Shown: positions 1-48,433 of the stretch, piece after piece | Numbering within the stretch: position 1 is the first letter of the stretch | How the letters are laid out: each line of letters opens with the position of its first letter | Source: a virus | Strand: one strand, 5' to 3' | Length of the DNA: 48,433 bases | IMG/VR virus record: IMGVR_UViG_3300025012_000137 | Coordinates: 1-48,433 of that record | The notes under the pieces: generated by a model | Database searches by the model: none | What the model saw: only the letters and a program-made list of their open reading frames with translations | Told to the model about the DNA's origin: nothing | Made by a program: the position numbers and the translations under genes

Positions 1-738
1 TGTACTTTGCTTTTGATGTTGTTACGGATGTGTATGTCATTGAAGAATTTCCACCATATGATGGCTGCCAATCCAATAATCTACTCTCATAAATCGGTCT
101 ATTGATAAGATTAGCAGCTGTAAAAGTTGGAACGCTCCAAGTATATCCAGCACCAGCGGAAAGAGTAGCGGCGAAACGTCCTATGTTGACAATCACATCG
201 TCAGCAGCTATAGCAGAACCATATTTGTAAAATAATTTTTCGGACGTATCTGATGCCATATTTACATCAGCTCCAACGTTTGCATAAGGGATTCTTGACC
301 AACCAATTGTAAACGTCGAGGATGCTGCTCTCCATCCCAAATAAACAAATAAATCTGTTTCTTTTGTGGCTAGTTCTGCACTTCCAAGATTTGCGTAGTT
401 TGTACCAGCATTTGCAGTTATTGCTAAAGCACTCGTAATCTCCCTAATTTCATCTCCTATTCTTTTCCTGATAGGATTAGCTGCTGTCGGGTCGCTTCCG
501 TCCAGATGTTTCAGAGCCACTGTCAGATTATTGGAAGTGACAGAGGGGACTATTTTGTAAGGAGTTTCGTTGGTAAGTTCCAAAGCGTCTTTTGCTGTGA
601 AAATAAGCGTCACATTCTTTGTTCCCGCAGAAAAATCAACCAAAGAACCTGCGTTGGAAGAAGCATAAACAGTCACTCTAGTTAAGGTGTCTGGAGTTCC
701 GTCAGTGAAAACACCCTCTCCCACTTCCCACTCGGATT
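1..738. repeat. Terminal homology, copy A of the contig-end duplication
   Basis: Bases 1-738 align to 47702-48433. The first 112 bases are identical, as are about the last 65. The centre (about 181-430) is divergent and the two copies differ in length by 6 bases (738 against 732), which keeps the reading frame. This pattern fits a circular genome assembled through a two-allele bubble better than a true exact terminal repeat. Confidence 0.85.
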
Positions 739-892
739 GGTCGGTGGTTTCAATGAGATATCTAACAGTTGCCCCACTTGTTACAGCGGAAACGAATGTG
801 CGAAAACCAGTCGGTGCAGTACCTGATAGGGAAACCGTGCCTGTTCCAGTGGTTGTTGTTTCTTCTTTTATTCTGTCTTTGCGTTCAAGCAT
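1..892 (-). CDS. Tail fibre / receptor-binding protein, allele A (3' part cut by window start)
   Basis: Reading from ATG at 892 the frame is open to base 1. The N-terminus (MLERKDRIKEE) is followed by a phage fibre domain containing YLIETTDQSEWEVGEG, TPDTLTRVTV and SNAGSLVDFSAGTK, a pattern I know from tail-fibre attachment domains (family knowledge). The rest is beta-rich and ends mid-gene at SKAKY. The missing C-terminus is present at 47430-47701: joining base 1 to 47701 keeps the frame and gives 388 codons including stop. Bases 181-430 differ strongly from the copy at 47430-48433, while both flanks are near identical. It follows the glycosyltransferase at 899-1873 in the late operon in reverse order. 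Role inferred: host recognition. Confidence 0.75.
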   Translation of the reverse strand, partial: MLERKDRIKEETTTTGTGTVSLSGTAPTGFRTFVSAVTSGATVRYLIETTDQSEWEVGEGVFTDGTPDTLTRVTVYASSNAGSLVDFSAGTKNVTLIFTAKDALELTNETPYKIVPSVTSNNLTVALKHLDGSDPTAANPIRKRIGDEIREITSALAITANAGTNYANLGSAELATKETDLFVYLGWRAASSTFTIGWSRIPYANVGADVNMASDTSEKLFYKYGSAIAADDVIVNIGRFAATLSAGAGYTWSVPTFTAANLINRPIYESRLLDWQPSYGGNSSMTYTSVTTSKAKY

Positions 893-1921: not shown

Positions 1922-2146
1922 ATGGCTCAATCACCACTCCCCCAGGAGGAAGAAAGAGAACTAATGGATTTTCCTGAAGCCATCAGGGAAGCGACTATCG
2001 GTAAAAAGATACGAAGAGAATTTTGGCCGGAAGGAGAATTTGGGTATTTCAGGGGCGACTTCCTGATGATCCACAAGGATTCAGAAGACTTTTTCTGGAG
2101 GGTGAGCATGGGCGACGCGGTGGAATCGGATTGGGTTTCTTTTTAA
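1922..2146 (+). CDS. DUF2829 / Tad2-like small protein (possible Thoeris anti-defence)
   Basis: 74 residues. The core DFPEAIREATIGKKIRREFWP followed by a C-terminal DAVESDWVSF matches the pattern of DUF2829: an N-terminal F-x-E-A-L helix, G-K-K-V-R-R-x-x-W, and an ending D-W-x-x. That family includes Tad2, which sequesters the cyclic ADP-ribose-type signal of Thoeris defence (established for characterised Tad2 proteins). The N-terminal 15 residues are extra, so translation might start at the internal Met in LMDFPEAI. It has its own promoter, lies alone on the plus strand between transferases, and its end overlaps the convergent methyltransferase stop. Most DUF2829 members are untested, so the anti-defence role is inference. 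Confidence 0.6.
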   Translation: MAQSPLPQEEERELMDFPEAIREATIGKKIRREFWPEGEFGYFRGDFLMIHKDSEDFFWRVSMGDAVESDWVSF

Positions 2147-2679
2147 ATCTTTCTGAATTTCGCATACATAAGCTTTTCTTTCGGATAAACGGTTACACAT
2201 CCTTCTAGGACGTAACCGTTTTTTTCTACAAATTTTACAAGTCCAGCAGGCGACCATTCTTGAATATGGTATTTATCAGTCAATGTTCCATCATCTTTTT
2301 TCGGAGGGGTATTTATATATAAAATAGGAGCCACACGCAACGCTTCGGCTAATGCTTTTTCTGGAAATTCAAAGTGCTCTAAAACGTCTATCATTGTAAC
2401 GGCTTCAAAACTATTGTCTTCGAAAGAAAGTTCGTAGGCATCGCCTTGGATAACATCGACTCCTTTTTCTTGAGCAAGTCTCACTCCTTCTTCTTCATAT
2501 TCGATACCTTTAGCTCCAAGAAGTTTAGTGATAAGCCCATCTCCAGCCCCGACATCAAGGACATTCTTTTCTTTCACCCAGTCCTTAACCCGATTGGCGT
2601 GAGTGTGATATTTATTGTTCACATCGGCATATTCCCTGTGGTGATATGCGCCCTTCTCCTTATACTTAGAAAATTCCAT
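2143..2679 (-). CDS. Class I SAM-dependent methyltransferase
   Basis: 178 residues. Motif I is VLDVGAGDG (about 40-48). A motif-II-like stretch is DVIQGDAYEL, then EAVTMIDVLEHF, the usual D-V-L-E-H of small-molecule/glycan methyltransferases. No DNA-target domain or DPPY/PC motif is present, so methylation of a sugar, lipid or small acceptor is more likely than DNA methylation. The start codon shares one base with the stop of the upstream gene (TAATG), so translation is probably coupled. It belongs to the glycan-modification cluster. Confidence 0.8.
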   Translation of the reverse strand: MEFSKYKEKGAYHHREYADVNNKYHTHANRVKDWVKEKNVLDVGAGDGLITKLLGAKGIEYEEEGVRLAQEKGVDVIQGDAYELSFEDNSFEAVTMIDVLEHFEFPEKALAEALRVAPILYINTPPKKDDGTLTDKYHIQEWSPAGLVKFVEKNGYVLEGCVTVYPKEKLMYAKFRKI

Positions 2680-3179
2680 TATTTTAGAAAGTTTAAATCT
2701 TTAGTGTTGCTGAATACGCTTGTCCAAGGCTTGCTTTCTTGCCAGATGTGCATATATTTGAAGAGTGGGAATGCTTTGTGAAGTTCGTATTTCTCCTCTT
2801 TCTCCGTGTCATGCATTATCAGGTAATCTGCATGATCTTTAAACTTGATTAAATCTATTACGCGCCTTTTGTCTGGATGATGATCTATGAAAATTACTCC
2901 CCATTTTTCCAGCGGAACAGAACCCCAATTGTCTTCTTCCACGAAACGAACTCTATGCAGATGACTCTGGAATCCCTTGCAAAGCCTGAAGTATTGCGGA
3001 TCACTTTCGTAAGTGACTAATTTTCTGCCTTGAATTTTACACATCCAGTGAAGGAGAGGGGTGCTAAATGGTCCTCCTCCTAGTTCAAGAACCGGACCTT
3101 CGCTTTTTTGGAGAACCTTGATGAGAGTTGTCATGTGGGTCGTCCAAAGTTTTACTGTGCTGACTTTTATGTTTATCAT
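2679..3179 (-). CDS. SAM-methyltransferase-like protein
   Basis: 166 residues from the ATG at 3179 (MINIKVSTVK). That start forms an ATGA overlap with the stop of the upstream gene, which is why I prefer it to an upstream in-frame start inside that gene. It has GPVLELGGGPFSTPLLH (motif I, ELGGG), then VTYESDPQYF (acidic residue of motif II) and VIFIDHHPD (motif III position). This is the pattern of class I methyltransferase-fold proteins associated with sugar biosynthesis. Substrate unknown. Confidence 0.65.
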   Translation of the reverse strand: MINIKVSTVKLWTTHMTTLIKVLQKSEGPVLELGGGPFSTPLLHWMCKIQGRKLVTYESDPQYFRLCKGFQSHLHRVRFVEEDNWGSVPLEKWGVIFIDHHPDKRRVIDLIKFKDHADYLIMHDTEKEEKYELHKAFPLFKYMHIWQESKPWTSVFSNTKDLNFLK

Positions 3180-3862
3180 TTGAAGTGTTTTAATATGTCC
3201 GATGGTGCTCCCCAGTTGGGAATCGAGTGTGCCCGAAGGGTCCCGTGTCTCTTCCAACGTCTTCTGGCCCTGTCATCTAAACCGAATTCGTGGTTGATAT
3301 TGATAATCGGATTATAAGTCGAGAAGTCTTCTGATTTTCTTTTGGTGAGTCCTAATTGTTTGTCGGATCTCCATCTCCCAGGCTCCCCTGTCGCTTCTGG
3401 TGGAGTTCCGTTGGGATATTTAGCGAACCTTTCTTCCAACGCGTCTATAAGGAGTTCCCGATTACAGATAAGTGTCCAATTGCCTCTACGATTTCTCCAT
3501 GAAAACATTGTTGGATCCCATCGAAATAAAGACCAATGACTTAAGTTGTAGTAAAAAACATCGTCTTTAGGGGGTTTGAAGTTGAAATGATCTGTACAAT
3601 AAAGAGAATCTGATTCAGCAACTGCTATATATTTGGTAGTTGCTATTTTTGCTGATCTTAACATTTGCCAGTAAACATTCGATGCACTAGGTGTTTCTGT
3701 TTGGATCAGGTTGATTCCTTTTCCCATGTCCGTAGGTATTCTAGATACAGTAATGAGTTCCGCATCTCCTATCGAATCTAAAAGAACTTTCTTGTGATAT
3801 TCTTCCCATTTAGGAGGGAGATTGTTTAAGGTGAGAAAAATGACGGTCGTGTCTTTATTCAT
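3176..3862 (-). CDS. Glycosyltransferase-like protein (paralogue 1)
   Basis: 228 residues. It starts DTTVIFLTLNNLPPKWEEYHK and has IAVAESDSLYC, where the acidic pair sits where GT-A enzymes bind metal. It shares order and spacing with the next gene: IxFLTxxxLPxKWxExH, L-I-T-V/L-S-R, P-S-x-S-N-x-x-W/YQMLR, T-K-Y-I/V-A-x-A-E, LEERFAKYP. The two genes are therefore a tandem duplication. Start and stop overlap both neighbours by a few bases. A sugar-transfer role is inferred from the fold pattern and neighbours only. Confidence 0.6.
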   Translation of the reverse strand: MNKDTTVIFLTLNNLPPKWEEYHKKVLLDSIGDAELITVSRIPTDMGKGINLIQTETPSASNVYWQMLRSAKIATTKYIAVAESDSLYCTDHFNFKPPKDDVFYYNLSHWSLFRWDPTMFSWRNRRGNWTLICNRELLIDALEERFAKYPNGTPPEATGEPGRWRSDKQLGLTKRKSEDFSTYNPIININHEFGLDDRARRRWKRHGTLRAHSIPNWGAPSDILKHFK

Positions 3863-4586
3863 TGAAATATTTCTGTAAATCTATTGACTTCCCCCATGGA
3901 GAAACCTTTAATGCTTGTATAACACCATGTTTCTTTTTATGTCTTCGTTCTACTGATTCTTTGCTTGCATCATGTACTGTAAAGAAGTCGTGGTCGGCTT
4001 GTATGACTGGTTCAATAGATTTCCACTCAACAACTTTTCTCAGAGTAACTCCCAATTGTTTCTCGTAACATCCCAATTCTCCACACATCCCCACCGGAAT
4101 ATCTTTCATGTCGTGTGGATATTTGGCGAAGCGTTCTTCGAGTGCCTCCAGTGCCAAGTTGGTTGGTGCAATTAAAGTTGCGTTTGTCTTGATGTAATTT
4201 TTAAGCGAGTAGATTGGACTCCAAGAATACCATGTCCAACGATGCTGATTATATGCGAATTCATCATCCTTCGGTCTAAATTCTGTAAAATGACTCTTCG
4301 GCATCAGACAATCATCTTCCGCGATAGCCACATACTTTGTCTTGACCATCCTGATTCCTCTAAGCATCTGATAAAAGATGTTTGACTTTGAAGGTGGTTG
4401 ATCCTGGATGAGATTTATGCCGGGAAGGGTGCTGGGCTCTCTCGACAGCGTGATTATCGGAGCATTTCCTACTGATTTTAGAAGTTGTTCTCGGTGGAAC
4501 TCCTTCCATTTCTCAGGGAGTCGGTCGTTGGTAAGGAAAATTATTGTGAGATCAGATTCCGAACCTTGGTCTAGTGACTTCTTCAT
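3855..4586 (-). CDS. Glycosyltransferase-like protein (paralogue 2)
   Basis: 243 residues. It is a paralogue of the gene at 3176-3862, with LTIIFLTNDRLPEKW, NIFYQMLRGIRMVKTKYVAIAEDDC and LEERFAKYP in the same order. The segment AIAEDDC is a cleaner acidic D-D motif than in paralogue 1 (AVAESDS), so this copy may be the catalytic one. It overlaps the GT2 gene upstream by 35 bp and the paralogue downstream by 8 bp. Acceptor unknown. Confidence 0.6.
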   Translation of the reverse strand: MKKSLDQGSESDLTIIFLTNDRLPEKWKEFHREQLLKSVGNAPIITLSREPSTLPGINLIQDQPPSKSNIFYQMLRGIRMVKTKYVAIAEDDCLMPKSHFTEFRPKDDEFAYNQHRWTWYSWSPIYSLKNYIKTNATLIAPTNLALEALEERFAKYPHDMKDIPVGMCGELGCYEKQLGVTLRKVVEWKSIEPVIQADHDFFTVHDASKESVERRHKKKHGVIQALKVSPWGKSIDLQKYFNE

Positions 4587-5349
4587 AATGTTGGGTCCAA
4601 ACTTTTAATGCATAATCGAATGATCTTTGGGAATCTTCACGATTTATATTATGGGTCCTGCTGAATGATCTGTGCTTATGGGCGTACCAAGTCTTTTTAT
4701 TGAGCATCAGTTTTCCGCCAGCTTGCCAAGTCTTAAAAACCATCTCGACTGAATCCTGATAAAGTGGACCATAGCCCTCGGTCTGGAGTTCTCCGATAAC
4801 TTTATCCCACCATGATTTATGCATGATCCACATCGATCCTTGCATGCCCATGGTTTCGCCGATTTCCACGTCTGCCATTTCTTTGTTTCTCGATCTCCAG
4901 GTAACTGCTGAGAATTTCTTTTTGGCTTCATCTTCGCAGATTATGAGTTTGGCGAAGTTCTTCGGCTCCTTGCTCATCACTTCCCATTCGACCGGGTCGA
5001 GTTCGTGCCGCGAAAGCGTCATGATCCAGTTTTCCTCGAAGGGTCCCTCGGTAACTATTCTATCCCAACCTTTTGCGACCATGCAGTGTTCATCGAAACG
5101 AGCGATGAACTTTCCCTGGGCGACGGCGACTCCGGCGTTGATGGCGTCTCTCATCCCGAGGTTGGTAGTGGAGTGGATAGTCTTAATTCTTTTATCGTTT
5201 CTAATTGGTGTTTCTGGCCAGTAGCTGTCCAAGACCACGATTATTTCCATTTGATCGACTGGAAGTTCCGAATTTTCCAAAAGTGAATCTATAGTCTTAT
5301 GGAGCAAGATATCACGATAGCTCGGTATAACGACGGATAGGAGTGCCAT
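4552..5349 (-). CDS. Family 2 glycosyltransferase
   Basis: 265 residues. LLSVVIPSYRD (2-12), MEIIVVLDSYW (about 33-43), then GKFIARFDEHCMVAKGWD (D-x-H/E acidic motif about 83-93), MQGSMWIM and a C-terminal YGPLYQDSVEMVFKTWQAGG, the usual GT2 acceptor-site region. The C-terminal segment W-Q-A-G-G-K-L-x-x-N-K-x-T-W-Y-x-H matches the one in the GT2 at 899-1873, so the two are related. It overlaps the adaptor-like gene upstream by 38 bp, so the transferases are transcribed with structural genes. Confidence 0.85.
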   Translation of the reverse strand: MALLSVVIPSYRDILLHKTIDSLLENSELPVDQMEIIVVLDSYWPETPIRNDKRIKTIHSTTNLGMRDAINAGVAVAQGKFIARFDEHCMVAKGWDRIVTEGPFEENWIMTLSRHELDPVEWEVMSKEPKNFAKLIICEDEAKKKFSAVTWRSRNKEMADVEIGETMGMQGSMWIMHKSWWDKVIGELQTEGYGPLYQDSVEMVFKTWQAGGKLMLNKKTWYAHKHRSFSRTHNINREDSQRSFDYALKVWTQHYEEVTRPRFGI

Positions 5350-6052
5350 TGAATTTTTCTCTTACTGGTTTAAACGTCATTACTACGGGCGTTCTGTCCT
5401 GATAGTATGAATAAAATTGCGATTCCAACTCTGATACTTTTCTATCAATTAAAGGATTGTGTTTCTCAGCGTAGATAAGGGTGTAATCCTGAGCGACTTT
5501 CAGCGGGATAAGATTGTGGAAGTTCGCTTCGAATGTTGGCTCGAGCACCTGGGCTGTGGCGTCTGTGATTGCAGTGACGAGGGTTTTTTGCCTGGCATTG
5601 ATCAGAAGTTTAATTCCATCTGTTACAGTGGTAGTAGTCAGCAGTGGTCTAACAAAATACGAATCCCTGAAAACGAAAACCTTAGGTGACGTCTGAGAAT
5701 AAGTTCCTTCGTCTTGGAACATTTCCTTGCCGACGTCGCTTTTGTTGATGATCTCAGCCGGCACGTGTCCGTCGCCATAATCGATGTAAACCTCATCAAG
5801 CGTAAACGCGTCTGATGGGAAGGGGTATTCGCCGTTGTAACCGAGATCCTGCTTAGTGAGTCCGGTGGTGTTTTCCAGATCGATGACCTTGAAGTCTCCG
5901 TCCGTGTTTAAATAGCCCTCGGCCTCGAGTTTCATCATCTGGATTTCTCCGTAGATACGGTTGATGTCCTCGTCTAAAGTGGCGTCTGGGTAGTTGTCTG
6001 AGTTAGACTTGGTATAACGCCTACTCTGACTTCGAAGTGTCGCTAGATTCAT
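5312..6052 (-). CDS. Head-tail adaptor-like virion protein
   Basis: 246 residues. It opens NLATLRSQSRRYTKSNSDNYPDATL and continues to a helical N-terminal region of the type seen in phage connector/adaptor proteins (LxxDINRIYxEI). The middle is beta-rich and carries EYPFPSDAFTLDEVYIDYGDG. The C-terminus is helical (NLIPLKVAQDYTLIYAEK). Such proteins bind the portal ring and start the tail. Position in the late operon supports this. I cannot separate an adaptor from a T7 gp11-like tail tube A protein. Confidence 0.55.
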   Translation of the reverse strand: MNLATLRSQSRRYTKSNSDNYPDATLDEDINRIYGEIQMMKLEAEGYLNTDGDFKVIDLENTTGLTKQDLGYNGEYPFPSDAFTLDEVYIDYGDGHVPAEIINKSDVGKEMFQDEGTYSQTSPKVFVFRDSYFVRPLLTTTTVTDGIKLLINARQKTLVTAITDATAQVLEPTFEANFHNLIPLKVAQDYTLIYAEKHNPLIDRKVSELESQFYSYYQDRTPVVMTFKPVREKFNGTPIRRYTELS

Positions 6053-6224
6053 CTTCTTGTTTATTAGTTTCCTTAATCATTTCTTCGATCTCCCTATAAG
6101 CTCCTTGGAGGCGCACCATTTCGGTGGCTATCTCGTTGAGCTGCTGCTGGGCTTCCTGTTGCTTTTGGGAGAGTTCTCCAGCGCGTTTTTCAAGTTCTTT
6201 CTTTTTGTTTTCTAAAATTTCCAT
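6021..6224 (-). CDS. Small coiled-coil protein
   Basis: 67 residues, almost wholly charged helix rich in K, E and Q (KKKELEKRAGELSQKQQEAQ), with heptad-like leucine, isoleucine and methionine positions and an acidic tail EDESSDTSKSE. It overlaps the adaptor start by 32 bp. It could be a structural spacer or chaperone in virion assembly; function not recognised. Confidence 0.6.
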   Translation of the reverse strand: MEILENKKKELEKRAGELSQKQQEAQQQLNEIATEMVRLQGAYREIEEMIKETNKQEDESSDTSKSE

Positions 6225-6225
6225 A

Positions 6226-6612
6226 TTAACATTCCTCGATTAACATTTTACATGTCGAAGTTCCGGATCCGCTTTCAACTACCTTTACTTGGATGTAGTC
6301 ATAAGCGAAGTGCTCGAGGTCAAGAGCTGTAAAGATTGTGTCATCTCCAGTTAGCTCGACAGTGATGTTCCTTTCGAGTGTCTGAGAATGGTTATTGACA
6401 TCGTTAGAAATCATATTCACATAAGGAATAAACTCTCCGCCAGTTGCATGACCGTCAATCGAGGCTTGGATGCTGAATACCGCACTTCCACTTACGTGGT
6501 CTTCCCTCTTAAAGGAGAAAGTTACTTTTTTTGCGTAACGGACGCTTATCGGTTCCGACACGTCTGTGGCTGTTGCCCCGTCTAAGGGAGTGATTTGTCT
6601 AATTTTCATCAT
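6226..6612 (-). CDS. Hypothetical beta-rich virion protein
   Basis: 128 residues, not recognised. Alternating hydrophobic/polar stretches (VTFSFKREDHVSGSAVFSIQAS, YDYIQVKVVESGSG) suggest a beta sandwich. It sits between capsid-region genes and the adaptor, one base away from the coiled-coil gene, so a head- or neck-associated structural role is likely. Two adjacent Met codons open the frame (MMKIRQ); either could start. Confidence 0.6.
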   Translation of the reverse strand: MMKIRQITPLDGATATDVSEPISVRYAKKVTFSFKREDHVSGSAVFSIQASIDGHATGGEFIPYVNMISNDVNNHSQTLERNITVELTGDDTIFTALDLEHFAYDYIQVKVVESGSGTSTCKMLIEEC

Positions 6613-6617
6613 ATTAT

Positions 6618-6842
6618 TTATTGTTTATTGGCTAATATTGCTTCGCGTTCTTCTAATGTTAGTTCGTGAGCGGTTTGGGGGTCGAATCCCTCCACGAGCG
6701 TCGGGCATTCCTTGAGGTGCTTGACTCCTTTGGAGACGCAGAATGGGCAGAAAATCAAGGCTTTTTTGTTCTGTTTTTCCCTCCATTTTCTGGCCTGTTC
6801 GACGGTCATGCTTTTGCCATCGATAAGAAAAAATTGTGGCAT
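6618..6842 (-). CDS. Small protein with C-x2-C...C zinc-binding-like site
   Basis: 74 residues. The segment IFCPFCVSKGVKHLKECP holds CxxC plus H and C ligand candidates. The C-terminal half is an acidic helix ending LTLEEREAILANKQ. Function is unknown. It is five bases from the next gene, in the late operon. Confidence 0.5.
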   Translation of the reverse strand: MPQFFLIDGKSMTVEQARKWREKQNKKALIFCPFCVSKGVKHLKECPTLVEGFDPQTAHELTLEEREAILANKQ

Positions 6843-6902: not shown

Positions 6903-7391
6903 TTAAGAAGCTGAAGGTGAGCTTGACACCGAAGACGACGGAGAGGTGCTTGGAGAAGCTGAAACCGAGGTCGAAGGCGAACTAGATACTGAAGAACTAA
7001 CCGAAGTCGATGGACTAGCTGAGACAGACGTGCTAGGAGAAGTAGAAGGACTGCTCGAAACAGATGTCGAAGGACTTGCTGAAATCGAAGTACTAACAGA
7101 AGGAGATGTCGAAGGACTATCTGAAACTGAAGTGCTAGGACTTGTACTAGGCGAGCTAGAAATCGATGAGCTAGGACTGCTAGATACCGACGTTGAAGGC
7201 GATAAACTAGGAGAACTAGACACCGAAGGACTGGTACTTACCGAAGTACTTGGAGAAGTGGAAGGTGAGGTCGATTCGATTCTCGGACCTATCCAATAAC
7301 CATTCTCATCGATAACCTGTACGAGAACTCCGCTAGAATTCTTAACCCAAAATCCATTTCCAGTTGTGACCCATTCTTTACGACTGGCCAT
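6903..7391 (-). CDS. Ser/Pro/Thr-repeat (mucin-like) virion protein 1
   Basis: 162 residues. The N-terminus (about 1-40) carries TGNGFWVKNSSGVLVQVIDE and NGYWIGP. The remainder is a low-complexity run of SPSTSPSTSVSTSPS-type units. The neighbour at 7412-7642 has the same N-terminal unit and repeat, and the protein at 46705-47268 shares the repeat. A 38-base block (6976-7013) is identical to 46925-46962. This looks like a flexible, possibly O-glycosylated virion filament (inference). The open frame on the opposite strand is a by-product of the repeat. Confidence 0.7.
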   Translation of the reverse strand: MASRKEWVTTGNGFWVKNSSGVLVQVIDENGYWIGPRIESTSPSTSPSTSVSTSPSVSSSPSLSPSTSVSSSPSSSISSSPSTSPSTSVSDSPSTSPSVSTSISASPSTSVSSSPSTSPSTSVSASPSTSVSSSVSSSPSTSVSASPSTSPSSSVSSSPSAS

Positions 7392-13771: not shown

Positions 13772-13849
13772 AATTTTGAGCCTCTGCCCTGAATTGAACA
13801 GGGAATCGCTTTTTACAAGAAAGCAGTTATTACCGTTTAACTAAAGAGG

Positions 13850-14287
13850 CTAGTCTATTCTGTAAATATCATCCGGTCCTTTAACAGCTTTTTTAGGTTC
13901 CTCCAGTGAATCAAGTAGCGCTGCCATAGTGATCGGCTTGTCATCAGCTCCTCCGTCAAGTCCCATGTTTTGTCGGGCCTTCCCGAAGACCTGATCGGCT
14001 AGCCACATGGCCATCCGTTTATCCATCTTGGACCATTTCTTGATCCTCTCTACTAACATCCGTGTGTCCTTCTCACTCATGTATTCCCGGACTTTCTTTT
14101 TAAGATTGGCTTGCTGGGATTGGGTAGATCCTTTTTTCCTGCCTGCTCCAGTCCTGGATCCGCCGCGCTTCTCGTCCGGGTTTTTAGAGAGGATATCCTT
14201 CACTTCCTTATCAAGAATGTCTTCCACTTCGGCGTCGAGAATGTCTTCTTCCATTTTCTCTTGTTCTTCGTGTGTTATTTCTTCCAT
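13850..14287 (-). CDS. Terminase small subunit-like protein
   Basis: 145 residues. The N-terminus is very acidic with repeated D-I-L-x-x-E-V units. Then RGGSRTGAGRKKGSTQS, a basic DNA-contact stretch common in phage small terminases, and a helical C-terminal part (MLVERIKKWSKMDKRMAMWL). Immediate placement before terL supports DNA-recognition in packaging. The stop codon is TAG. Confidence 0.6.
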   Translation of the reverse strand: MEEITHEEQEKMEEDILDAEVEDILDKEVKDILSKNPDEKRGGSRTGAGRKKGSTQSQQANLKKKVREYMSEKDTRMLVERIKKWSKMDKRMAMWLADQVFGKARQNMGLDGGADDKPITMAALLDSLEEPKKAVKGPDDIYRID

Positions 14288-18686: not shown

Positions 18687-18892
18687 CATGGTCAAACGGA
18701 AAACATGCTTTTTACGGCAAAAGAAATGATCGCGCCAGACGAAGCCGATCCAAAATCATCAAGGGAATTAAAAACATCGCCCGGATTGAGGATTTCAAGA
18801 AAATAGAAGCGGAGTTGAGGAGTGGTACCTCACAAGTCTCAAACTCGTATACGCAGGTTCGAATCCTGCCTCCGCGACTGAAAACAATCTAA
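18683..18892 (+). CDS. Small basic protein whose end reads through a tRNA-like element
   Basis: 69 residues. The first 45 are basic (KHAFYGKRNDRARRSRSKII). The last 25 (SYTQVRILPPRL) are the typical accidental translation of a tRNA T-arm and acceptor. The frame may be real up to the tRNA-like element or may be chance. It is coupled to the preceding peptide by ATGA. Confidence 0.35.
   Translation: MTWSNGKHAFYGKRNDRARRSRSKIIKGIKNIARIEDFKKIEAELRSGTSQVSNSYTQVRILPPRLKTI
18809..18876 (+). tRNA. tRNA-like element, isotype unclear
   Basis: Acceptor GCGGAG (18809-18814) pairs with CTCCGC (18870-18875). A D-arm GAGG-AGTGGTA-CCTC and an intact T-arm GCAGG-TTCGAAT-CCTGC (18853-18869) are clear. The anticodon arm is poor: the best fold, ACAAG/CTCGT, has one mismatch, a TCTCAAA loop with C instead of U33 and no clear position 26, so no anticodon is safe. 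The encoded 3' end is GACTG, not CCA. It is either a degenerate tRNA, a tRNA mimic or the remnant of an attachment site. Confidence 0.5.
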
Positions 18893-19732: not shown

Positions 19733-20437
19733 ATGAAAAAAACACGCTGGAAATTTCTCTACTTGAAGGATGGTAAAATTAAGTCCGCACATGGTGAATG
19801 CGAATGGAAAATAGGAGAAAGAAAAAAAGAGGACAAGGTGGATTTATGTGATTCAGGCTTTCATTGTTCCAAGAAGATATACGAAGCTTTTTCTTATATA
19901 CAGGGCGAGATTTTGGCTAAGGTTGAGGTCGGTGGTAAGTGCGAGATAGGAGATGACAAAGAGTGTTATACGGAGATGACAATTATTGAGACTTACAAGT
20001 GGACAAAAAAGGATAGCGTAGCGTTGTCGATTTATGCCGCAGAATTAGTGCTGGATAATTACGAAAAACAATATCCAGGAGACCCAAGGCCGAGAGAAGC
20101 AATTGAAGCGGCAAAAAAAGTATTAGAAAACGACACGGAAGCAAATAGGTCCGCCGCCTGGTCCGCCGCCAGGTCCGCCTGGTCCGCCGCCAGGTCCGCC
20201 GAGTCCGCCTGGTCCGCCGCCTGGTCCGCCGCCAGGTCCGCCTGGTCCGCCGCCTGGTCCGCCGCCTGGTCCGCCGAGTCCGCCAGGTCCGCCGCCTGTT
20301 CCGCCGAGTCCGCCAGGTCCGCCGCCTGTTCCGCCGAGTCCGCCAGGTCCGCCGCCTGTTCCGCCGAGTCCGCCGTTATCAAAAAAATAGATAAGTGGAT
20401 GAATAATAGAATTAAAGAGCTTGAAACATATGAATAA
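19733..20437 (+). CDS. Protein with globular N-terminus and Ser-Ala-x repeat domain
   Basis: 234 residues. Residues 1-110 form a compact domain (WKFLYLKDGKIKSAHGECEW; DLCDSGFHCSKKIYEAFSYI) of a kind common in phage proteins of unknown function, with a G-x-x-W and G-F-H-C/A-S core. Residues about 138-215 are tandem S-A-W, S-A-A-R and S-A-E units. The last 20 are a charged helix. The repeat should form an alanine-rich helix or rod. Function unknown. It is the first gene after a strong promoter. Confidence 0.7.
   Translation: MKKTRWKFLYLKDGKIKSAHGECEWKIGERKKEDKVDLCDSGFHCSKKIYEAFSYIQGEILAKVEVGGKCEIGDDKECYTEMTIIETYKWTKKDSVALSIYAAELVLDNYEKQYPGDPRPREAIEAAKKVLENDTEANRSAAWSAARSAWSAARSAESAWSAAWSAARSAWSAAWSAAWSAESARSAACSAESARSAACSAESARSAACSAESAVIKKIDKWMNNRIKELETYE
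20144..20376 (+). repeat. GTCCGCC-based tandem DNA repeat inside a gene
   Basis: Repeated words of the type GGTCCGCCGCC and GAGTCCGCC run for about 230 bases; the last part is three near-perfect 33-base copies. It is GC-rich against an A/T-rich background. The antisense frames give Gly/Pro and Asp/Ala repeats that are not genes. The reading frame is maintained in units of three, so the number of units can change without breaking the gene. Confidence 0.85.
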
Positions 20438-20620: not shown

Positions 20621-21187
20621 ATGGACAACAAAAGCAACAGCGGATACCGCAACAGCGGAGACTACAACAGCGGAGACTACAACAGCGGATACCGCAACAG
20701 CGGATACCGCAACAGCGGATACTACAACAGCGGAGACTACAACAGCGGATACTACAACAGCGGAGACTACAACAGCGGAATTTTCAACACAAACGAGCCT
20801 AAAATGAGAGCTTTCGGGAAAGAAGCCGAAATGACTTTTTCAGAATGGAGACATAGCGATGATTATATCATCTTCGATATTCCTCTCAACACCTATGTTT
20901 TTTATTCAGATATGACAGACGAAGAAAAAAAGGAGCACGATTACGCTAAAACCACAGGAGGTTATCTAAAAACCTTAGAATATAAAGAAGCCTGGGCTAA
21001 GTGGTGGGAAGAAAACAAGTCTGAGGAGATGAAGAAGAAAATAAAGAAACTTCCAAACTTCGACAAAAATATATTTGAGGAAATCACAGGCATTAAAATC
21101 GACGCCCAAGAAAAGGTTGAAATCTCGATGGACGAAATAGCAGAGAAATTCGGAGTTGATGTCAAGAGCTTGAAGATTAAGAAATAA
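20621..21187 (+). CDS. Pentapeptide-type (NSGxY) repeat protein with globular C-terminus
   Basis: 188 residues. Residues 6-53 are about ten copies of a five-residue unit N-S-G-Y/D-Y/R (GYRNS GDYNS), which could form a short right-handed beta solenoid like pentapeptide repeats. The C-terminal domain begins MRAFGKEAEMTFSEWRHSDDY and is helical and charged. Pentapeptide proteins can mimic DNA, but ten units is short for that. It has the leader AATAATATG with no Shine-Dalgarno site. Confidence 0.65.
   Translation: MDNKSNSGYRNSGDYNSGDYNSGYRNSGYRNSGYYNSGDYNSGYYNSGDYNSGIFNTNEPKMRAFGKEAEMTFSEWRHSDDYIIFDIPLNTYVFYSDMTDEEKKEHDYAKTTGGYLKTLEYKEAWAKWWEENKSEEMKKKIKKLPNFDKNIFEEITGIKIDAQEKVEISMDEIAEKFGVDVKSLKIKK
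20633..20780 (+). repeat. 15-base tandem repeat coding NSGxY
   Basis: About ten copies of AACAGCGGANACTAC-like units in one frame. Units differ only at the variable third and fourth residues, which suggests recent expansion. Confidence 0.8.
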
Positions 21188-26474: not shown

Positions 26475-26669
26475 ATGAGAAAACCAGAACATATCATTGA
26501 CATAATATTCCGCCTAAAGAAACTGTGGATGGAGAACAATGATCTCAGAATCTCACAACTCGTAGGCAATCTTCACGAGGATATCTATTTTATTGAAGAT
26601 GATGTGTTCATAGAAAAATTGGAAGCGTTTTATAATGGCGAAAACAAAAAAACAAAAATTAAAAGATGA
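26475..26669 (+). CDS. Small phage protein (RxPxxI...L-W pattern)
   Basis: 64 residues: RKPEHIIDIIFRLKKLWMEN, DLRISQLVGNL, DIYFIEDDVFIEKLEAFYNG. The pattern recalls small proteins found across phages and bacteria with P-x-R-I...W...P-D-x-R-L-x-Q-L-I...D-x-F-x-x-E-D. Function unknown. It starts directly after the previous stop and overlaps NinG by 35 bp. Confidence 0.6.
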   Translation: MRKPEHIIDIIFRLKKLWMENNDLRISQLVGNLHEDIYFIEDDVFIEKLEAFYNGENKKTKIKR

Positions 26670-27033
26670 GGCTGATAAACAATTTAGTCTCTATATACGA
26701 CTCAAAAACGCTGACTGGAGAGGGTATTGTACGTGTTACACGTGTGGGAAGGTATCTCTCTATAATGAAGGGATGCAATGCGGCCACTTTATAAGCCGCT
26801 CCAGCAGCACATTGAGATTCGACGAAAACAACGTCAGAGTCCAATGCGTGGGTTGCAATATTTTTAAGAGCGGAAACTACATTGAATACACGCTGAGGAT
26901 GATTAAGGAAAAAGGCAAGAAATTTGTAGAAAAATTGAAAGAGCGGGGCAGGGGAACACACCAATTCACCGAAAAAGAACTACAGGAAATAGTCGACAAG
27001 TACAAACAAAAAATTAAAGATATAGAAAAATGA
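26635..27033 (+). CDS. ninG: NinG/Rap-like recombination endonuclease
   Basis: 132 residues. CTCYTCGKVSLYNEGMQCGH then FISRSSSTLRFDENNVRVQC and VGCNIFKSGNYIEY match lambda NinG: C-x-x-C, M-Q-x-G-H-F, L-R-F-D-x-x-N-V, Q-C-x-x-C-N, S-G-N. In lambda this protein (Rap) cuts recombination intermediates. Zinc ligands are the two Cys pairs. The downstream gene starts 4 bases before its end. Confidence 0.85.
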   Translation: MAKTKKQKLKDEADKQFSLYIRLKNADWRGYCTCYTCGKVSLYNEGMQCGHFISRSSSTLRFDENNVRVQCVGCNIFKSGNYIEYTLRMIKEKGKKFVEKLKERGRGTHQFTEKELQEIVDKYKQKIKDIEK

Positions 27034-44854: not shown

Positions 44855-46135
44855 TTATTCAATAGAGATGTAATCGATCACAGGACTTTCGGTTCCTGAT
44901 GGAGTAATTGTGATCAGTGCTTGAGCACCGCTTTTGATAATCATATCGTCCACGGTCTGCACACAGCGTTGGTCATCTGAATCATCAATAACCGTATGGC
45001 TCGTCCAATTACTTTCAGAATCCAAACGTGTATAAATTCCGATGGAAGCTCCGTTCAGATCATCGTAAAAAACTTTTATTTTATTTGCCTTTTTAAAGCG
45101 TGGGGTTATCACGCGGGCATTGGCGAAGTAATTCGCGTCTATTTCGTCAACTCCGAATGTTCCCGAAAGTTCCCAACTCACCAGAAGCTGCGATCCATTG
45201 GCCACGATAGAATGTATTGTCGCATCCGATCCGGCAGAACAGGTGTATTCACCTACAAGGGCAAATGGAAGATTTCTGTTTCTTCGGTGCAAACTGTAAA
45301 TCCTGCCGCCGTTGGCGATAAGAGGCTTGCCTTGGAAATTTGTGGTAAGTTGATGTCCCGTGGTAGCGGCCGCGTTTCTGATGTTTGAGAAAAGCTCAAG
45401 TTGGTTGCCGTTGTAAAGGTAGATATCCCCACTAAGACAAACTACATGGATATAATTATCAGAATCCAAGAAGGCATAAGCCCCTTTTTGCTTGATAGTA
45501 TCTTTAACCGAGTAGCTGTCCCCAAAAGTGTTCCAGCGGGTGATATTGCTGTCGTTGATATATGACCCCGGGTTGGAGAGCGTAAGGAGATCATCACCCA
45601 AATTGGTAAGTGCTCCTATGCTGTCTTCTATTTGCAAGTCCAATACCGAAGCTGAAAATACCCCGGCGTCATCGACAGAAGCGACATTATACTGGTTTCC
45701 GATGTAAAGGATGAGATCGAACTGAAAGAGTGGATGTGGATATCCGGCTGTCAATGTCTGCCAACTATCAGTCCAGGTGGCACTCAAATCAAATCTTCCC
45801 AGTTTTGAATCCGAAGTATAGTAAAGATAATTCCTGTAATAAGCACAACCTTTGTGGGCTCCATTGGCGTTGGTGTTCACCAGCGTATATGTCCCATCAG
45901 AGATAGCTCTTTTCCAAACTTTACCGTCTGTTTTGGAGAAGAAATAAGTGTCTCCGTTTGGCACGACAGCCGAGAAGCAGCCGGCTGTGATGGTTGACCC
46001 GGATTTTTTAGTAAGAGTCCTTTGACACATCAAAGAACCAATTTCTTCGTGAACTGAACAGTTCTGCAAATCGTCAAAAGAGTTAGATACTTTTTTAGAA
46101 ATTCCTATACCGTTATACCATTTTCCAAATTCCAT
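44855..46135 (-). CDS. Beta-propeller-like tail protein
   Basis: 426 residues. Repeats of beta blades with aromatic turns: GDTYFFSKTDGKVWKRAISD, CAYYRNYLYYTSDSKLGRFD, FDLILYIGNQYNVASVDDAG, GDIYLYNGNQLELFSNIRNA, RIYSLHRRNRNLPFALVGEY. The repeat length near 45-55 residues suggests a propeller. Probably a tail hub or fibre-holder; ends 3 bases before the fibre start. Confidence 0.6.
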   Translation of the reverse strand: MEFGKWYNGIGISKKVSNSFDDLQNCSVHEEIGSLMCQRTLTKKSGSTITAGCFSAVVPNGDTYFFSKTDGKVWKRAISDGTYTLVNTNANGAHKGCAYYRNYLYYTSDSKLGRFDLSATWTDSWQTLTAGYPHPLFQFDLILYIGNQYNVASVDDAGVFSASVLDLQIEDSIGALTNLGDDLLTLSNPGSYINDSNITRWNTFGDSYSVKDTIKQKGAYAFLDSDNYIHVVCLSGDIYLYNGNQLELFSNIRNAAATTGHQLTTNFQGKPLIANGGRIYSLHRRNRNLPFALVGEYTCSAGSDATIHSIVANGSQLLVSWELSGTFGVDEIDANYFANARVITPRFKKANKIKVFYDDLNGASIGIYTRLDSESNWTSHTVIDDSDDQRCVQTVDDMIIKSGAQALITITPSGTESPVIDYISIE

Positions 46136-46704: not shown

Positions 46705-47268
46705 TTAGATTGGTCGTTTAATATCTCTATAAAGAGGTTGGTTAGGTTTTTGGATTGATCCGTAATTTGGTTGGGATGGCTTGCCTATCCCACCATAGTT
46801 GGGTTGGTTAGGTTTTTGGATGCTTCTATAATGAAAGGCCACCGTCGGGGAAGGAGAAGCTGAGATAGAGCTGGAAGCCGAGGAGCTGATTGAGGAAGAG
46901 GGTGAAGTGGACGGGCTGGAGCTGGGCGAACTAGATACTGAAGAACTAACCGAAGTCGATGGGGAGGTGCTGGGGCTTGCTGATATTGATGAAGACGGGC
47001 TGGTTGAAATACTGGACGACGGAGATACCGAGGGAGACGATGATATGGAACTCGACAAGGAAGAAGACGGCGAAGTGCTTGGGGAAGCAGAGGGGCTGGA
47101 GCTAGGGCTGGAACTTATCGAGGATGACGGACTGCTGGAAATTGAAGAACTTAAAGAACTACTGGGTGATGAGGATATTGAAAATGATGGCGACGATGAA
47201 GGGCTCGTAATAAGAGGTTGTCCGCTATCCGCATACCCGGTTGTGCCATAAGCATTATTTCCATACAT
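46705..47268 (-). CDS. Ser/Pro/Thr-repeat (mucin-like) virion protein 3
   Basis: 187 residues. N-terminus MYGNNAYGTTGYADSGQPLI, then about 110 residues of SPSSSISSSPSSSLSSS-like repeats, then SIQKPNQPNYGGIGKPSQPN-type K-P-x-Q-P-x-Y-x-x-I repeats. Bases 46925-46962 are identical to 6976-7013. The tail repeats look like a binding or anchoring segment. The opposite-strand frame is a by-product. Confidence 0.65.
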   Translation of the reverse strand: MYGNNAYGTTGYADSGQPLITSPSSSPSFSISSSPSSSLSSSISSSPSSSISSSPSSSPSASPSTSPSSSLSSSISSSPSVSPSSSISTSPSSSISASPSTSPSTSVSSSVSSSPSSSPSTSPSSSISSSASSSISASPSPTVAFHYRSIQKPNQPNYGGIGKPSQPNYGSIQKPNQPLYRDIKRPI

Positions 47269-47429: not shown

Positions 47430-48433
47430 TTAGATATAAAACCTGTGGTCACATACTATTCTAGTGTCAGATGCCAGAGTAAAATTACCGCCTGTGTATA
47501 AAAGGCAAGTTATTTTTGCTGCTGTGATTACTTGTATTAATGAGACCTGCCAATCAGAAAGACCTGTTCTATAAAAATTACCCGATGTATAAACATTTGC
47601 AGCAGGCGTAAATGGAGTTGTCGCATATATAAAATTAGATGCTGTTCCTCCAGTTATGCCAGATGAAAATATTCCAAAATAAACATCGTTTCTATCTATT
47701 CTGTACTTTGCTTTTGATGTTGTTACGGATGTGTATGTCATTGAAGAATTTCCACCATATGATGGCTGCCAATCCAATAATCTACTCTCATAAATCGGTC
47801 TATTGATAAGATTAACCGCCGTGAAAGTCGGAACGCTCCAAGTATATCCAGCCCCAGCAGAAAGAGTAGCGGCGAAACGTCCGATAACCTCGACTATATC
47901 TGTATTAGCGGGAACATTGTCCCATTTTCTTCCTTTTTCATCTGTGCTACTTGCAGCCAAATCGCCAGCAACATTGGCTGCGGGATAACGTGAAACACCA
48001 ATCCTGACTGCCGAATCAAGTGTTTCCCAAGAAAGATAGGTAAAATAATCGATTTCTTTAGTGGCTAACTCCGAAGAACCAGCGTTACACCAGTTCGTTC
48101 CAGCTGTTAATTCGGCCGAAAGAGCCGAGGTAATTTCCCTTATCTCATCCCCTATTCTTTTCCTGATAGGATTTCCTGCCGAAGGGTCGCTTCCGTCCAG
48201 ATGTTTGATAGCTACTGTTAGATTGTTGGAGGTGACGGAGGGAACTATTTTGTAAGGAGTTTCGTTGGTAAGTTCCAGAGCGTCATTCGCCGTAAAAACC
48301 AAAGCTACATTCTTTGTTCCCGCAGAAAAATCAACCAAAGAACCTGCGTTGGAAGAAGCATAAACAGTCACTCTAGTTAAGGTGTCTGGAGTTCCGTCAG
48401 TGAAAACACCCTCTCCCACTTCCCACTCGGATT
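47430..48433 (-). CDS. Tail fibre / receptor-binding protein, allele B (5' part cut by window end)
   Basis: The frame is open to the last base (reading SEWEVGEGVFTDG at the edge), so an apparent GTG start at 48419 is not real. The missing first part is at 739-892; joining 48433 to 739 keeps the frame and gives 386 codons including stop. Compared with allele A the central part reads VRIGVSRYPAANVAGDLAAS instead of FTIGWSRIPYANVGADVNMA, while both flanks match. The C-terminal end (NDVYFGIFSSGITGGTAS...RIVCDHRFYI) is shared by both alleles in the closed genome. Confidence 0.75.
   Translation of the reverse strand, partial: SEWEVGEGVFTDGTPDTLTRVTVYASSNAGSLVDFSAGTKNVALVFTANDALELTNETPYKIVPSVTSNNLTVAIKHLDGSDPSAGNPIRKRIGDEIREITSALSAELTAGTNWCNAGSSELATKEIDYFTYLSWETLDSAVRIGVSRYPAANVAGDLAASSTDEKGRKWDNVPANTDIVEVIGRFAATLSAGAGYTWSVPTFTAVNLINRPIYESRLLDWQPSYGGNSSMTYTSVTTSKAKYRIDRNDVYFGIFSSGITGGTASNFIYATTPFTPAANVYTSGNFYRTGLSDWQVSLIQVITAAKITCLLYTGGNFTLASDTRIVCDHRFYI
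47702..48433. repeat. Terminal homology, copy B of the contig-end duplication
   Basis: Aligns to 1-738; see copy A. It defines a genome unit of 47701 bp with allele A or 47695 bp with allele B. Confidence 0.85.

What the first reader, a model, noticed from the sequence alone, without database searches (positions are those of the whole stretch)
1..738. Contig ends carry two alleles of one tail-fibre segment: circular genome with a variable receptor-binding tip
Bases 1-738 and 47702-48433 share exact flanks (112 bases at one side, about 65 at the other) but differ in the centre with a 6-base length difference. Closing the contig through either copy restores a full-length in-frame gene (388 or 386 codons). 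A simple terminal repeat would be exact, so this looks like a population with at least two fibre alleles, with change confined to roughly residues 155-240.
Basis: partly seen in the sequence, partly recalled or inferred. Interest (0 to 1): 0.72.

Follow-up and report, generated by a model that had tools for sequence, protein, structure and literature searches.

The report
Two alleles of a phage fibre
An uncultivated phage genome was assembled as a line whose two ends hold two versions of one tail-fibre gene; the part that differs is a shared domain just below the receptor-binding head, which matters because related phages keep breaking and recombining in this same gene.

Summary
Closing the contig through either gives an open frame of 388 or 386 codons. 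Gene order in relatives makes the two contig ends neighbours. In two relatives, G015 and G060, the circular record is cut inside the same gene, and an independent contig crosses the cut with one copy. Best reading: a circular map with at least two alleles. The 127-base overlap equals the k-mer repeat of other records. The 'variable receptor-binding tip' is not supported as stated: the difference lies in a neck domain shared by 71 viral records; the head after it is present once, and allele A's head is unseen beyond about 22 residues. Synonymous change is zero in the flanks and 0.26-0.76 inside, and the cores are as unlike as those of unrelated viruses: recombination of a diverged segment, not point mutation or a retroelement. 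In relatives the head is swapped. No reads were available.

The parts
1..738 (-). copy A of the fibre-gene segment (runs off the contig start towards the C-terminus)
47702..48433 (-). copy B of the fibre-gene segment (runs off the contig end towards the N-terminus)
1..113 (-). exact flank X, copy A (113 bases; = 47702-47814)
612..738 (-). exact flank Y, copy A (127 bases; = 48307-48433)
114..611 (-). diverged centre, copy A (498 bases, residues 94-260)
47815..48306 (-). diverged centre, copy B (492 bases)
68..556 (-). neck domain, allele A (163 aa); conserved in 71 viral records and one bacterial genome
47769..48251 (-). neck domain, allele B (161 aa)
47433..47768 (-). C-terminal head (112 aa), present once; model matches solved phage receptor-binding heads and viral fibre knobs
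739..892 (-). N-terminal start of the fibre gene, present once; with flank Y it forms the anchor module found in L004 and L008-L016
899..1873 (-). gene upstream of the fibre, glycosyltransferase family 2 (PF00535)
46705..47268 (-). gene downstream of the fibre, starts MYGNNAYG, Ser/Pro-rich; L004 has an MYGTRKYG gene at the same place
44855..46135 (-). next gene downstream; homologue follows the fibre in L004 (7888-9168, 33% identity)
5312..6052 (-). gene of the other contig end; homologue lies just upstream of the fibre in L008
24090..24842 (+). PD-(D/E)XK exonuclease (PF12705, phrog_298), possible recombination function
26635..27033 (+). NinG family protein (PF05766)

Best explanation
The window is an almost complete phage genome with a circular map of about 47.7 kb. 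The assembler cut it inside the tail-fibre gene because the population carries at least two alleles there. It entered the genome through allele A, went round, and came back through allele B to the point where both share 127 bases. The gene encodes an N-terminal anchor, a conserved neck domain and a C-terminal receptor-binding head. The alleles differ in the neck domain because homologous recombination between co-occurring phages replaced a diverged segment of about 0.5 kb between conserved flanks. Shown: the two versions, their sharp borders, gene order across the closure, and the same behaviour in relatives. Inferred: coexistence in one population, the recombination event, and that the gene is an adhesin whose variation is under selection.
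For: Two versions with exact flanks, both closures in frame. Gene order: in L004 the fibre gene is followed by an MYG gene and the homologue of 44855-46135; in L008 a homologue of 5312-6052 precedes it; in the window these lie at opposite ends. The exact overlap of 127 equals the exact terminal repeat of G002, G024, G068 and G076, and k-mer-sized terminal repeats are a known mark of circular templates (PMC8116208, passages). G015 (42 kb) has an inexact 218-column terminal repeat (97%) inside its fibre head, and contig L039 runs straight across the cut with one copy; G060 (123-base repeat at its fibre start) is bridged by L086. One copy of the domain in 71 of 72 records. Synonymous difference 0 in the flanks, 0.26-0.76 inside; in the core A and B share 47% against 55% and 53% for the best full-length unrelated virus. 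Three other pairs show near-100% identity that drops abruptly in this gene: L062/L078, L069/L094, L076/L080. 7 of 71 contigs end within 100 bases downstream of the domain, 0.5 expected.
Against: No reads: depth and linkage of the two versions are unknown. The shared flank on the start side is 113, less than 127, so copy A is not joined to the head by a full k-mer; A could carry another head beyond base 1. One relative, G064, truly has two domain copies in tandem, so duplication occurs in this group. The joined gene was made only in a script.
Confidence: 0.8

Rival explanations
1. The genome carries two tandem, partly converted fibre genes; the contig broke because the assembler collapsed their shared flanks.
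For: G064 has two domain copies about 1.26 kb apart on one strand. The contig alone cannot exclude this.
Against: 71 of 72 records have one copy. Zero synonymous change in 113 and 127 bases of flank would need very recent duplication or conversion; the matching stretch in G064 is only 91% identical. G015 and G060 show the same cut with one copy in the bridging contig.
Confidence: 0.08
2. Allele A belongs to a second, related phage strain with a different head, and the assembler joined its 738-base branch to this genome; the closure 47701|1 is then artificial.
For: Shared start flank is below 127. In relatives the head after the domain is usually different (384 of 388 pairs), and contigs tend to stop just there.
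Against: The first 22 residues of the head and all 113 bases are identical between A and B. L076/L080 shows a replaced patch with an identical head.
Confidence: 0.1
3. A programmed diversifier (diversity-generating retroelement or invertible segment) makes the variants.
For: Variation confined to one adhesin-like gene.
Against: No reverse transcriptase at E<=1 in the window; changes of every kind with indels, not adenine only; copies lie in the same orientation and no inverted 25-mer exists.
Confidence: 0.02

Closest known systems
Recombinational exchange of receptor-binding domains in tail fibres and tailspikes (T-even distal fibre locus; E. coli O-antigen tailspikes, PMC10408124)
   Same: Conserved sequence around a swapped segment of a modular adhesin gene; heads differ between otherwise similar phages.
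   Different: In the window the exchanged piece is the conserved neck domain, with the head seen once. The domain has no Pfam or PHROG family above weak single hits. The T-even case is known to me from the reference list of PMC10408124 and from recall only.
Metaviromic / viral genomic islands that fragment short-read assemblies (PMC6487183, passages read)
   Same: Population variation in host-recognition or tail genes breaks assemblies.
   Different: Those are gene-scale islands of up to about 5 kb found by read recruitment; here it is about 0.5 kb inside one gene, inferred from contig ends.
k-mer-sized direct terminal repeats of circular contigs (CheckV, PMC8116208, passages read)
   Same: Overlap of exactly 127 bases at one side.
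   Different: The repeat is interrupted by a diverged centre, so a test for exact end repeats does not see it; the record is classed as linear.

Membership tests
Circular genome cut by a k-mer assembler | exact terminal overlap of k-mer length | tested here: inconclusive
   exact 127 at one side, as in 4 of 50 relative contigs; only 113 at the other, with a diverged centre
Circular genome cut by a k-mer assembler | genes at opposite contig ends are neighbours in relatives | tested here: met
   L004 and L008
Recombinational exchange of adhesin modules | sharp borders between identical and diverged sequence | tested here: met
   also L062/L078, L069/L094, L076/L080
Recombinational exchange of adhesin modules | exchange of the receptor-binding domain itself | tested here: inconclusive
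   in the window the head is present once and A's is unseen; in relatives the head is swapped in 384 of 388 pairs
Recombinational exchange of adhesin modules | change of host specificity | not testable with these tools
   no isolate
Diversity-generating retroelement | reverse transcriptase gene | tested here: not met
   PF00078 no match at E<=1
Diversity-generating retroelement | adenine-specific substitutions against a template repeat | tested here: not met
   all kinds of change plus 34 gap columns in the alignment; no further copy in the window
Invertible tail-fibre segment | inverted copies | tested here: not met
   copies in direct orientation; no inverted 25-mer
Phage receptor-binding head (beta-sandwich knob) | fold of the C-terminal domain | tested here: inconclusive
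   AlphaFold2 model pLDDT 90; VIA-align Z 10.0 (2.8 A, 114 residues) to 6f7d, 8.6 (3.0 A, 109) to 6r5w, 5.6 (3.1 A, 93) to 1zru; no Foldseek PDB match at E<=0.001
Metaviromic island | under-recruitment of reads | not testable with these tools
   no reads

The most novel reading that the evidence does not exclude
An undescribed neck domain acts as a common exchange platform: in a group of phages of Patescibacteria it is the conserved joint between interchangeable anchors and interchangeable receptor heads, and population-level recombination in it is frequent enough that short-read assemblies break there. The window would show one exchange caught with both alleles present.
Probability: 0.4. Interest if true: 0.62.

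Novelty: new member of a known kind. Interest (0 to 1): 0.42.

Why it matters
It shows that exact-repeat tests can miss circular phage genomes when the cut falls in a variable adhesin gene, and that inexact ends can mark the gene under recombination. It also points to a domain found in 71 uncultivated viral records but in none of 50,697 GenBank phage records by tblastn with allele B, and ties some of its carriers to Patescibacteria, bacteria whose phage receptors are, to my knowledge, largely unknown.

Tried and rejected
Exact searches of viral contigs with two flank patterns found no other copy; the collection may hide near-identical records. The tail protein 44855-46135 found no relative. 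No phage record matched the gene or the domain. Terminase relatives G008-G011 hold no fibre match. A first structure model from 6 sequences was poor (pLDDT 58.6) and gave no fold. The good model has no Foldseek PDB match at E<=0.001; three viral predicted proteins match at that level, all uncharacterised. The neck domain itself had hardly any structural match (one weak row over residues 1-153, 8kec, Z 5.0); it was not modelled and searched alone. No profile match to solved sequences. A search of 379 genomes of the Moraniibacteriota genome's phylum gave that genome and one weak match, so the domain is rare in bacterial genomes.

Rejected: retroelement and inversion. Rejected: contig ends as physical genome ends; near-identical relatives continue past the ends (L062 past L078, L094 past L069, L039 past G015).

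Limits of counts: 71 viral records were used, one match each (second copy in G064 and the bacterial genome dropped), 68 of 72 loci (L096, L099, L101 with in-frame TGA and L104, identical to L043, dropped), and the pairs are not independent and include some heads cut by contig ends, 50 of 71 records (all 48 of at least 15 kb and two shorter), with low-complexity matches in G004, G025 and G050 not counted as terminal repeats.

Full report
Observation. The window is an IMG/VR record of 48,433 bases classed as linear. Its first 738 and last 732 bases align end to end: 113 identical bases at one side, 127 at the other, and a diverged centre. Both ways of closing the contig give an uninterrupted gene on the minus strand, of 388 or 386 codons with the stop. 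There is no third copy.

Are the ends neighbours? The anchor part of the gene matches L004, L008 and others. In L004 the gene is followed at once by a gene beginning MYGTRKYG and then by the homologue of window 44855-46135 (33% identity over 436 aligned positions). In L008 a homologue of window 5312-6052 lies upstream. In the window these neighbours stand at opposite ends, so gene order supports closure. The window has glycosyltransferase- and methyltransferase-like genes between 5312-6052 and the fibre gene.

Why the contig looks like this. Of 50 relative contigs whose ends were compared, ten have terminal repeats: 127 exact bases in G002, G024, G068 and G076; 123 in G060 and G048; 49 in G064; 47 in G012; and inexact ones in G015 (218 columns, 97%) and G072 (325, 96%). 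CheckV's authors describe terminal repeats of k-mer length as the mark left by circular templates, which they say appear to be broken at random places (PMC8116208, passages). The window's 127-base overlap fits k = 127; which assembler was used is not known to me. Three of those ten records are cut inside the fibre gene (G015, G060, G064), where about 0.3 would be expected if a gene of about 1.2 kb in about 40 kb were hit at random (my estimate). For G015 and G060 an independent contig crosses the cut with one gene copy: L039 matches the end of G015 at 1930-4425 and its start at 4211-6710, both above 99.7%; L086 does the same for G060 at 91-95%. G064 is the exception: it has two domain copies in tandem.

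What differs. The gene has three modules: an anchor, a neck domain of about 160 residues (KIVPSV...RLLDW), and a C-terminal head of 112 residues. A search with the neck finds 71 viral records and one bacterial genome. An AlphaFold2 model of neck plus head (273 residues, 57 sequences) has mean pLDDT 90. Its residues 154-273 align with the C-terminal part of the Dettilon tailspike (6f7d, Z 10.0), the receptor-binding protein of Listeria phage PSA (6r5w, Z 8.6), the lactococcal p2 receptor-binding protein (1zru, Z 5.6) and reovirus and adenovirus attachment heads. The tool warns that Z of 7-8 is a usual best score without a true match, and Foldseek gave no PDB match at E<=0.001, so this is a lead. 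The difference between A and B lies in the neck and the last part of the anchor, not in the head. The head is held once; of A's head only the first 22 or so residues are seen, and they are identical.

How the alleles arose. Synonymous difference is zero across both flanks and 0.26-0.76 between residues about 94 and 260; non-synonymous difference peaks at 0.60 at residues 218-232. In the core, A and B share 47% of residues, while the best full-length unrelated virus shares 55% with A (L061) and 53% with B (L104/L043); a truncated one, L100, reaches 56% and 61%. Such borders call for recombination: either a diverged piece came in, or the flanks were made uniform. Three other pairs of viruses show the same: L062/L078 (identical up to the neck, then 54-91% in 100-base windows), L069/L094 (identical, then 70-90%, head unalignable) and L076/L080 (a patch at 84-96% with an identical head after it). 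Other close pairs show no such patch, for example L053/L054 and L094/L095. The window encodes a PD-(D/E)XK exonuclease and a NinG family protein; a role in this exchange is a guess.

The wider pattern. Among 388 pairs with a neck 70-98% identical and all three parts present, the head is at least 20 points less alike than the neck in 384 (median 25% against 74%), and the 100 residues before the neck have a median of 27%. Contigs end just after the neck far more often than expected: 7 of 71 within 100 bases downstream (0.5 expected, no simulation of 20,000 reached it), 1 of 71 upstream; for contigs of at least 15 kb, 3 of 48 (0.17 expected, P 0.0007). As a control, none of 20 contigs with the neighbouring gene L068:1942-2985 ends within 200 bases of that gene. 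So the neck-head border is where assemblies break, which fits head variation in populations; it is indirect evidence.

Hosts. The one bacterial hit is a Candidatus Moraniibacteriota genome. There SecA, SecD, ComEC-like and IscS/NifS-like genes lie at 1-48 kb, a tyrosine recombinase follows, then the phage genes: an integrated prophage, identical over 8,268 bases to record L006/L043. Three viral records have TGA inside the domain, several of them at columns where the others have glycine, as expected for code 25, reported for Gracilibacteria and Absconditabacteria prophages (PMC10746230, passages; that TGA reads glycine in code 25 is recalled). So the carriers whose host can be guessed point to Patescibacteria; the host of the window is not known. 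The window uses the standard code: TGA ends 11 of 53 listed genes.

Literature. Searches were made; I read passages of PMC6487183, PMC12911398, PMC10746230, PMC8116208 and PMC10408124. Exchange of adhesin modules at conserved motifs (PMC10408124) and assembly breaks at variable viral islands (PMC6487183) are in print. I found no description of this neck domain in those search listings, nor a family in Pfam or PHROGs: among 57 members, one Pfam family and two PHROGs were each matched by one member, at E 0.0008 or weaker.

Verdict. It belongs to a known kind of variation.

Noticed in passing
L104-L108 (Candidatus Moraniibacteriota contig, fibre domain at 55343-55825): Integrated prophage with tyrosine recombinase next to SecA/SecD/IscS-like host genes, carrying the same neck domain.
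   Followed up: partly
L096, L099, L101: In-frame TGA codons in the domain, several at glycine columns: phages that probably read TGA as glycine.
   Followed up: partly
G064 (L089), 3-464 and 1723-2217: Two tandem copies of the neck domain in one record, the first at the contig start.
   Followed up: partly
G072 (L221/L222): Inexact terminal repeat (325 bases, 96%) far from its fibre gene: perhaps another variable locus at a circular cut.
   Followed up: no
window 18808-18878: tRNA-like gene with anticodon TCA (called tRNA-SeC by ARAGORN) although genes here end in TGA too; a tRNA-Thr lies at 13778-13850.
   Followed up: no
window 3176-4586: Two adjacent similar genes (228 and 243 aa) among glycosyltransferase- and methyltransferase-like genes between the head-side genes and the fibre gene.
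   Followed up: no
window 20621-21187 and 20148-20330: Pentapeptide-repeat protein and neighbouring short repeats.
   Followed up: no
window 46705-47268 and 6976: Ser/Pro-rich repeat protein (SPSSS) after the fibre; a 25-mer of it recurs at 6976.
   Followed up: no
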